Of a stretch of DNA of 64,000 nt, positions 43,688-45,763 are shown one piece after another. Position 1 is the stretch's first letter. The number at the start of each line of letters is the position of its first letter. The notes below the pieces were generated by a model, which did not search any database, was not told the origin of the DNA, and was given only the letters and a program-made list of their open reading frames with translations. The DNA comes from Nitrospira sp. GTDB taxonomy: Bacteria > Nitrospirota > Nitrospiria > Nitrospirales > Nitrospiraceae. Location: assembly GCA_024998685.1 (NCBI GenBank), contig JACOEH010000003.1:112411-176410 (forward strand), read 5' to 3'. Made by a program: the position numbers and the translations under genes.

Positions 43688-45763
43688 ATGGACTTCCGCA
43701 TTGCCGACACCTTCACCGACAGCCTCTCCCGCCTAACCGGCGATGAGCAAAAGGCTGTAAAGACGACGGCGTTTGACCTTCAACTCAACCCTGCCAATCC
43801 TGGTTTCAGCTTTCATAAGCTCGATAAAGCCAAGGACAAGAATTTCTGGTCGGTGCGAGTCAGCAGCGATCTCCGGCTGATCGTCCATCGCACATTGGGG
43901 AGCCTGCTCCTCTGCTACGTTGGCCACCACGACAAAGCCTACGACTGGGCTGAGCGTCGCAGGCTGGAGGCTCATCCAAAAACCGGCGCGGCTCAACTAG
44001 TCGAGATTCGCGAGAAGGTGCAGGAAGTCGTTATTCCAAAATATGTCGAAGCTCCCAAGGTCGAGGCCAAACAACAGCGGCTGTTTTCTCAGATACCTGA
44101 TACTGAGCTTTTGAGTTTTGGCGTGCCGGCGGAATGGCTCTCTGACGTGCACCAGGCTACCGAGGATACGCTGTTGGCCTTGGCCGATCATTTGCCTGGT
44201 GAAGCTGCAGAGGCGCTTCTTGAGCTCGCGACCGGTGGAAAGCCTCGGCTGGTTCAGCCTGTGCTAACGGCTTCAAATCCATTCGATCACCCGGACGCGC
44301 AGCGCCGTTTCCGTGTGATGACGAATGTCGAAGAGTTGGAGCGTGCCCTTGAGTACCCTTGGGAGAAATGGACGGTCTTTCTCCACCCGGAGCAAAGGCA
44401 ATGGGTGGAACGGAATTACAGTGGCCCGGCGCGAGTGTCCGGTTCGGCGGGGACGGGCAAGACGATTGTGGCATTGCATCGAGCCGCGTTCCTCGCTCGC
44501 ACCAATCCCGATGCCCGAGTCTTGCTGGCTACATTTTCTGACACGCTCGCGCATGCGCTGCATACCAAATTGAGACGGCTGGTTGGCAACGAACTACGCC
44601 TTGGAGAGCGCATCGACGTCCATTCGCTGAATACGCTCGGAGTTCGCCTCCACAAGTCCCTTCTTGGTCCGATCAAGCTCGCAAGCCGGAATGATGTAAA
44701 AGATATTCTAGAGGCGGCATCTCAATCCATCGGTGGCCATAAATTTACGCTTCACTTCCTCATGAGTGAGTGGGAACAGGTCGTCGATGCCTGGCAGCTA
44801 GCAAGTTGGGAAGCCTATCGGGACGTGGCCCGCTTGGGTCGCAAGACGAGGTTGCCTGAAGCCCAACGAGCCGTCTTATGGTCGATCTTTGAGCTGTGTC
44901 GTGCGGATCTCAAGGAGCGAGGGATCATCACGCAAGCTGCGGTCTTTACAGCTCTGGCTTCAGTAGTGGGTAAAGGGAATAACCCTCCATTTGACTTTGC
45001 CGTAGTGGACGAAGCGCAAGACATCGGCATTGCTCAATTGCGGTTCTTCGCCGCACTGGGAGGCAATCGTGAGAATGGTCTCTTCTTTGCCGGCGACCTA
45101 GGCCAGCGAATCTTTCAACAGCCGTTCTCTTGGAAGTCTTTGGGCGTTGATATTCGGGGGCGGTCACGCACGCTCCGCGTCAATTACCGGACTTCGCATC
45201 AAATCCGCATGCAGGCCGATCGCTTGTTAGGCCCGCAGGTTGCCGATGTCGATGGCCATGTGGATGATCGACGAGATACCGTTTCGATCTTCAATGGGCC
45301 ACCGCCTGTGATCGAGGTTCACAACAATGAAAAGGTGGAGAGCGAGACAGTTCGTGCCTGGATATCCGAACATGTGAAGGCGGGGGTGGCACCCCACGAG
45401 TTTGGGGTGTTTGTCCGTTCAGAGGCACAGTTGCCCCGTGCCCGTGCGGCAGTTGAGCAGGCTGGAATCCCTTTCAAGATCCTCGACGAGCATGTGGAGA
45501 CCACCAGCGGGTATGCTTCGATCAGCACGATGCATCTGGCTAAGGGACTGGAGTTTCGTGCGGTGGTTGTGATGGCTTGTGACGATGAGATTCTTCCCCT
45601 ACAAGAACGAATCGAGACGGTGGGAGATGATGCAGACCTTCAGGAGGTTTATGACACGGAACGCCATCTGCTCTATGTCGCCTGCACCCGCGCCCGCGAC
45701 TATTTGCTGGTCACCGGTGTGAAGCCAGGGTCGGAATTCCTGGATGATCTCATTGCGCGATAG
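43688..45763 (+). CDS. RelE/ParE-like domain fused to UvrD/Rep-type SF1 helicase (691 aa)
   Basis: N-term FHKLDKAKDKNFWSVRVSSDLRLIVHRTLGSLLLCYVGHHDKAYDWA; helicase GSAGTGKT, VVDEAQDIG, GDLGQRIF, VNYRTSHQIR, TMHLAKGLEF, VACTRARDYL. Confidence 0.88.
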   Translation: MDFRIADTFTDSLSRLTGDEQKAVKTTAFDLQLNPANPGFSFHKLDKAKDKNFWSVRVSSDLRLIVHRTLGSLLLCYVGHHDKAYDWAERRRLEAHPKTGAAQLVEIREKVQEVVIPKYVEAPKVEAKQQRLFSQIPDTELLSFGVPAEWLSDVHQATEDTLLALADHLPGEAAEALLELATGGKPRLVQPVLTASNPFDHPDAQRRFRVMTNVEELERALEYPWEKWTVFLHPEQRQWVERNYSGPARVSGSAGTGKTIVALHRAAFLARTNPDARVLLATFSDTLAHALHTKLRRLVGNELRLGERIDVHSLNTLGVRLHKSLLGPIKLASRNDVKDILEAASQSIGGHKFTLHFLMSEWEQVVDAWQLASWEAYRDVARLGRKTRLPEAQRAVLWSIFELCRADLKERGIITQAAVFTALASVVGKGNNPPFDFAVVDEAQDIGIAQLRFFAALGGNRENGLFFAGDLGQRIFQQPFSWKSLGVDIRGRSRTLRVNYRTSHQIRMQADRLLGPQVADVDGHVDDRRDTVSIFNGPPPVIEVHNNEKVESETVRAWISEHVKAGVAPHEFGVFVRSEAQLPRARAAVEQAGIPFKILDEHVETTSGYASISTMHLAKGLEFRAVVVMACDDEILPLQERIETVGDDADLQEVYDTERHLLYVACTRARDYLLVTGVKPGSEFLDDLIAR

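What the first reader, a model, noticed from the sequence alone, without database searches (positions are those of the whole stretch)
43688..45763. RelE-like toxin domain fused to a UvrD-type SF1 helicase as third gene of a Res-Mod operon
Residues about 1-115 look like a RelE/ParE fold (LRLIVHRTLGSLLLCYVGHHDKAYDWA) and the rest carries a full set of SF1 motifs (GSAGTGKT, VDEAQD, GDLGQRIF, NYRTSHQIR, TMHLAKGLEF, VACTRARDYL). The gene starts 4 nt after mod, which starts 2 nt after res, so all three are probably co-transcribed. A toxin-like RNase domain joined to a DNA translocase inside an RM operon suggests a back-up abortive function or a coupled effector. I do not know of a characterised system of this architecture, but similar fusions may already be in databases.
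Basis: partly seen in the sequence, partly recalled or inferred. Interest (0 to 1): 0.78.

Follow-up and report, generated by a model that had tools for sequence, protein, structure and literature searches.

The report
RelE-helicase subunit of a restriction operon
A bacterial restriction-modification operon carries a conserved third gene that joins a RelE-type RNA-cutting fold, with its active-site residues kept, to a DNA-translocating helicase; the same protein design is known from a recently described phage-defence system (ARMADA), but its fixed pairing with this restriction system appears not to have been described.

Summary
ORF 43688-45763 has a RelE/YoeB-fold N-terminus (model pLDDT 92.6; all 20 PDB matches with E <= 0.001 are RelE/YoeB/YafQ-type toxins) joined to a UvrD/GajB-like SF1 helicase, 4 nt after mod. 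Catalytic positions of RelE toxins are kept: R63, H81 and Y85 are essentially invariant, and position 43 (YoeB E46, YafQ H50) is only H or E in 357 relatives. The fusion is not new: it matches ArmD of ARMADA type II (Bell et al., bioRxiv 2025, PMC12458937), a direct, non-abortive anti-phage system. What looks undescribed is that a separate, well-supported clade of this protein is almost always the third gene of a BPTD_3080-family Res plus type III-like Mod operon: Mod lies upstream in 43 of 45 close loci with enough flank and in 27 of 27 from a broader genome draw. In most relatives the two gene junctions carry variable cargo, often known defence modules (SIR2-HerA, SoFic, HEC-01A, DUF1016). 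Best reading: a three-component type III-like restriction system with an ArmD-like translocase/RNase subunit; RNase activity is untested.

The parts
37803..39416 (+). res, N-terminal fragment: DEAD-type helicase part of a BPTD_3080-family restriction enzyme (GAGKT at residue 177, DEAH at 311)
   Evidence: NF046055 positions 2-462, 683 bits; motifs; 71-92% identity to intact relatives
39233..40873 (+). res, C-terminal fragment in another frame: helicase C part and PD-(D/E)xK endonuclease (PDF...EIK at residue 453 on)
   Evidence: NF046055 positions 459-969, 683 bits; PF19778 RE_endonuc; motif
39215..39240 (+). frameshift site in res
   Evidence: one base fewer than the closest relative L011; intact in the 90%-identical locus L172
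40876..43683 (+). mod, type III-like N6-adenine DNA methyltransferase, 935 aa (DPPY at 164 before DPTCGSG at 461)
   Evidence: PADLOC MTase_III PDLC03632, 1590 bits; PF01555; motifs
43688..45763 (+). ArmD-like RelE-SF1 fusion, 691 aa
43688..43972 (+). RelE/YoeB-fold domain, residues 1-95; putative catalytic residues H43 (43814-43816), R63 (43874-43876), H81 (43928-43930), Y85 (43940-43942)
   Evidence: fold; residue mapping; conservation
43973..44380 (+). linker and helical region, residues 96-231, partly disordered in the model (111-126)
44381..45763 (+). UvrD/GajB-like SF1 motor, residues 232-691 (Walker A at 252-259, VDEAQD at 440-445)
   Evidence: PF00580 and PF13361; GajB models; UvrD/PcrA/Rep fold

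Best explanation
The gene encodes the third, conserved subunit of a type III-like restriction-modification defence system (Res, Mod, ArmD-like protein). Mod methylates host sites and, with Res, recognises unmodified incoming DNA; Res translocates along it and cuts it. The RelE-SF1 protein then loads on the engaged or broken DNA through its UvrD-type motor and is needed for effective restriction, as ArmD is in ARMADA type II. Its RelE-fold domain most likely kept RNase chemistry (R63, H81, Y85 and a base, H or E, at position 43) and is held silent until the motor engages, since no antitoxin gene was seen beside it. Shown here: fold, residue conservation, operon linkage, clade structure. Inferred: that restriction depends on this subunit (by analogy to ArmD), that the domain cuts RNA, and how it is controlled. 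In the window itself res is frameshifted, so this copy may no longer restrict DNA.
For: RelE fold and SF1 fold. Catalytic positions of YoeB/RelE (PMC12620021) map to R63, H81, Y85 and H43 and are held in 357 relatives, position 43 being only H or E. Mod upstream in 43 of 45 close loci and 27 of 27 broader ones, always same strand. 19 of 20 Pseudomonadota genomes with this clade hold the Res family (Fisher 3e-25). Own clade, 100/98. ArmD, the nearest characterised relative, is essential for a direct anti-phage system (PMC12458937). Patchy distribution, 12 of 301 Nitrospirota genomes, and cargo of known defence modules in the same operons.
Against: No phage or RNase test exists for this triad. 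The only functional analogy is a relative at about 32% identity working with different partners. RelE-fold domains can bind without cutting. 2 of 45 close loci lack Mod nearby, and at least one intact Res-Mod pair lacks the fusion gene (L199), so Res-Mod may work without it. The window's own res is split.
Confidence: 0.6

Rival explanations
1. The RelE fold is only a docking or nucleic-acid-binding module that ties the SF1 motor to Mod, Res, ribosomes or RNA/DNA hybrids. No RNA is cut, and the system is a DNA-only restriction machine with an extra translocase.
For: ARMADA type II protection is direct and leaves host metabolism without shutdown, which fits no free RNase. W54, D82, W87 and A88 are as conserved as the catalytic positions within the Res-Mod set, which could be a binding surface.
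Against: Position 43 swaps only between H and E, the residues found there in YafQ and YoeB, and three of four catalytic positions are among the 12 invariant ones of 95 (p = 0.006).
Confidence: 0.35
2. The RelE domain is a back-up abortive effector: when restriction fails, the motor releases or activates it and it stops translation and kills or arrests the infected cell.
For: RelE toxins stop translation; catalytic positions kept; CRISPR effector Cami1 is a precedent for a fused RelE-type nuclease (fold match).
Against: The closest tested relative works non-abortively, with intact membranes and no metabolic shutdown.
Confidence: 0.2
3. The window copy is a decaying system: res is inactivated, and Mod with the fusion protein persist as an orphan methylase or as passengers.
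For: One-base frameshift in res; background split rate of 1 in 184 genes; decayed relatives exist (L202, L203).
Against: mod and the fusion gene are intact; one assembly error cannot be excluded because reads are not available. It does not affect what the family does.
Confidence: 0.5

Closest known systems
ArmD of ARMADA type II (Bell et al. 2025 preprint, PMC12458937)
   Same: Same architecture: N-terminal RelE-like domain fused to a GajB-like UvrD helicase, last gene of an operon with a DNA methyltransferase; about 32% identity over the full length
   Different: Partners are a BrxHII-like helicase, a PglX-like methylase and a YprA-like helicase, none of them in this operon; separate clade in the tree; position 43 is E in ArmD and H here
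Type III restriction-modification (Res and Mod)
   Same: Mod of type III kind; Res with DEAD helicase and PD-(D/E)xK endonuclease
   Different: Res is of the BPTD_3080 family, weakly matched by PADLOC type III Res models; conserved third gene; cargo in the junctions of most relatives
YoeB / YafQ / RelE mRNA interferases
   Same: Fold and catalytic positions
   Different: Fused to a 600-residue helicase; no antitoxin gene beside it
GajB of Gabija
   Same: SF1 helicase of the same general kind
   Different: No GajA partner in the operon; extra RelE domain
Cami1 (CRISPR ancillary RelE-type nuclease)
   Same: RelE-type domain fused to another module in a defence protein (fold match)
   Different: The partner module is a CRISPR-signal sensor (recalled knowledge), not a DNA motor

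Membership tests
RelE/ParE toxin superfamily | RelE fold | tested here: met
   Model pLDDT 92.6; the 20 PDB matches with E <= 0.001 are of this superfamily
RelE/ParE toxin superfamily | Catalytic residues of the RNase members (YoeB E46, R65, H83, Y84) | tested here: met
   R63, H81, Y85 (Y84 to Y85 in two of three alignment modes), with H or E at 43; sequence level only
RelE/ParE toxin superfamily | RNase activity | not testable with these tools
   needs an in vitro assay
Type II toxin-antitoxin system | Cognate antitoxin gene adjacent | tested here: not met
   mod ends 4 nt upstream; the next genes downstream are a nucleotidyltransferase and a HEPN protein, a pair of their own kind
SF1 UvrD/Rep-like helicase | SF1 motifs and fold | tested here: met
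   PF00580, PF13361; Walker A, VDEAQD and others invariant; fold
ARMADA type II | ArmD-like protein | tested here: met
   full-length homology at 32% identity to a plasmid ArmD
ARMADA type II | ArmC (YprA-like helicase) and ArmB methylase in the same operon | tested here: not met
   no ArmB match in the genome; ArmC gives only weak short helicase matches on other contigs. ArmA was not searched
Type III restriction-modification | Mod of type III kind | tested here: met
   PDLC03632, 1590 bits; DPPY before DPTCGSG
Type III restriction-modification | Res with SF2 motor and PD-(D/E)xK nuclease | tested here: inconclusive
   domains and motifs present, but the gene is split in the window
Type III restriction-modification | Cutting after translocation from unmethylated sites | not testable with these tools
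   needs biochemistry
Gabija | GajA OLD-family nuclease partner | tested here: not met
   the operon genes are Res and Mod; no GajA model among the operon and flanking genes scanned (best 25 families shown per protein)
Hma (DUF499-type) | DUF499 ATPase | tested here: not met
   no such domain in the operon proteins; definition

The most novel reading that the evidence does not exclude
A widespread three-component type III-like restriction system in which DNA translocation by an SF1 motor switches on a built-in RelE-type RNase, so that recognition of unmethylated DNA leads to cutting of DNA and nearby RNA; in addition its operon works as a two-slot platform that collects other defence modules.
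Probability: 0.35. Interest if true: 0.75.

Novelty: new variant of a known kind. Interest (0 to 1): 0.5.

Why it matters
It ties type III-like restriction to the ARMADA family through a shared RelE-helicase subunit. That gives a small three-gene system, simpler than ARMADA, in which the untested role of the RelE domain can be settled with a few point mutants. The cargo-filled junctions also make the operon a place to look for new defence genes.

Tried and rejected
phmmer of the N-terminus against the PDB gave only a chance match; an N-terminal profile gave sub-threshold RelE3 and YoeB matches, so structure was needed. The Hma system (helicase, methylase, ATPase) was considered because cargo matched 'HEC' models; rejected, since Hma is centred on a DUF499 ATPase. 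Gabija, toxin-antitoxin and ARMADA membership were tested and not met (membership test). BPTD_3080 has no hit in the paper library. PIWI-RE triads with a DinG helicase are something else. The promoter and terminator scan was uninformative, at or below chance.

Full report
Observation. The ORF, its motifs and its spacing are as described: res stop, 2 nt, mod; mod stop, 4 nt, fusion gene. Pfam sees the SF1 helicase strongly and the N-terminus only weakly, as a HigB-like toxin. Among 24 divergent relatives' N-termini, 12 match HigB-like toxin, 8 ParE-like and 2 YoeB at E <= 0.1, best 2.2e-6. AlphaFold2 on residues 1-110 with 65 sequences gave pLDDT 92.6 and pTM 0.86. Foldseek against the PDB returned RelE-superfamily proteins for all 20 matches with E <= 0.001 (YoeB E 5.5e-5; archaeal RelE, YafQ and others; TM-score 0.49-0.62 by query length, 0.58-0.76 by target length). 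The full-length model (pLDDT 84.8) matches UvrD, PcrA and Rep.

The nearest relative has one more base at the site, and the 90%-identical locus of another genome of the same genus is intact (L172). Of 185 genes compared between the two genomes, two are frameshift-split in the window's genome: res and one other. The split is therefore more likely real than not, but only reads can decide.

Active site. YoeB needs E46, R65, H83 and Y84, with H83 as general acid and E46 as general base; RelE needs R61, R81 and Y87 (PMC12620021). The YafQ residues H50 and H87 are recalled knowledge. The E. coli YoeB and YafQ sequences used were checked against the PDB. In three MAFFT modes YoeB R65 aligns with R63, H83 with H81 and E46 with H43, and YafQ H50 and H87 align with H43 and H81; YoeB Y84 aligns with Y85 in two of the three. 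Over 357 proteins from three searches, R63 and Y85 never vary, H81 varies once, and position 43 is H (223) or E (134) and nothing else: all H among close relatives, H or E in the set around an alphaproteobacterial member, all E in the ArmD set. Three of the four catalytic positions fall among the 12 invariant ones of 95 (hypergeometric p = 0.006). The domain is as conserved as the helicase (88.6% against 81.4% mean identity among close relatives). This argues for retained chemistry; it does not prove it.

Linkage. Reading the table, 45 close relatives have at least 5 kb upstream and 43 of them have Mod there; L061 and L080 do not. In 93 loci with both genes, all are on the same strand, and 64 also show Res. 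Record titles place them in at least ten phyla, many as metagenome bins. These loci were picked for similarity to the window. A broader draw from Nitrospirota, Pseudomonadota and Bacillota genomes gave 27 fetched loci at 47-90% identity, all with Mod upstream (some only as a fragment at a contig end), while most weaker ones (26-34%) sat next to ARMADA genes (7 of 11). In the same 401 Pseudomonadota genomes, 19 of 20 with a member of this clade covering most of the protein hold an NF046055 Res, and 27 hold a Res above the cut-off (Fisher 3e-25). Of the Res loci without the fusion gene that were fetched, two are distant relatives, two are decayed, one is a fragmentary locus on a short contig, and one is an intact Res-Mod pair.

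Phylogeny. In a maximum-likelihood tree, 39 rows (38 labelled Res-Mod, and L146, whose contig holds only the end of mod) form one group (100/98), and eight ArmD rows another (100/98). A Thermus ARMADA-like protein (L005) lies next to the Res-Mod group, and an orphan (L167) is a long branch of unsure place.

Cargo. Of 64 loci with all three genes, 52 have more than 200 bp between Res and Mod, between Mod and the fusion gene, or both. Representative inserts match SIR2 plus HerA (524 and 872 bits), SoFic (390), HEC-01A (641), PDC-M32A (367) and DUF1016/PDC-S02 (428) in PADLOC, and DUF4062 and DndB in Pfam. Embedded defence genes are known for other systems such as Hma and BREX. The window copy carries none.

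Comparison. The fusion is the architecture of ArmD (PMC12458937). There, all four genes and ArmD K266 are required, ArmD D454N loses activity only in part, and protection is direct; the reported mutants do not include RelE residues. I found no paper in the held library that describes the Res-Mod-RelE/SF1 operon, but most subscription journals are not covered. NCBI already names the Res family, and some databases annotate the fusion as RelE.

Verdict. Mechanism beyond 'third subunit of a restriction system' is inference.

Noticed in passing
window 45775-46678 (+): Nucleotidyltransferase and HEPN pair directly downstream, resembling a type VII (MntA/HepT) toxin-antitoxin module; the MntA match is below the NCBI cut-off (38 against 60 bits), HEPN is clear. 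A similar nucleotidyltransferase lies downstream of the fusion gene in L069.
   Followed up: partly
junctions Res-Mod and Mod-fusion in L009-L088 and L142-L178: Variable cargo in the two operon junctions of most relatives, including whole known defence modules such as SIR2-HerA and SoFic. The mechanism of insertion was not studied.
   Followed up: partly
own genome, contig C24:56356-62787 (+): A second, distant Mod-Res pair (31-46% identity to the window's) in the reverse gene order and without an SF1 third gene.
   Followed up: partly
L200:8024-11185 and L201:11425-14196 (-): Distant relatives of this Res, in Mod-Res order, lie near a UvrD helicase fused to a PD-(D/E)xK nuclease instead of RelE; in L201 it directly follows Res on the same strand, in L200 it is on the opposite strand.
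   Followed up: no
L005 (Thermus plasmid) 8989-10983: ARMADA-like partner genes, but the RelE-SF1 protein groups next to the Res-Mod clade and has H at position 43; R57 is replaced by Y.
   Followed up: no
window 36521-36832 (+): A 103-aa ORF upstream of res with only weak matches to DUF4258 and PBECR2 (E about 0.1).
   Followed up: no
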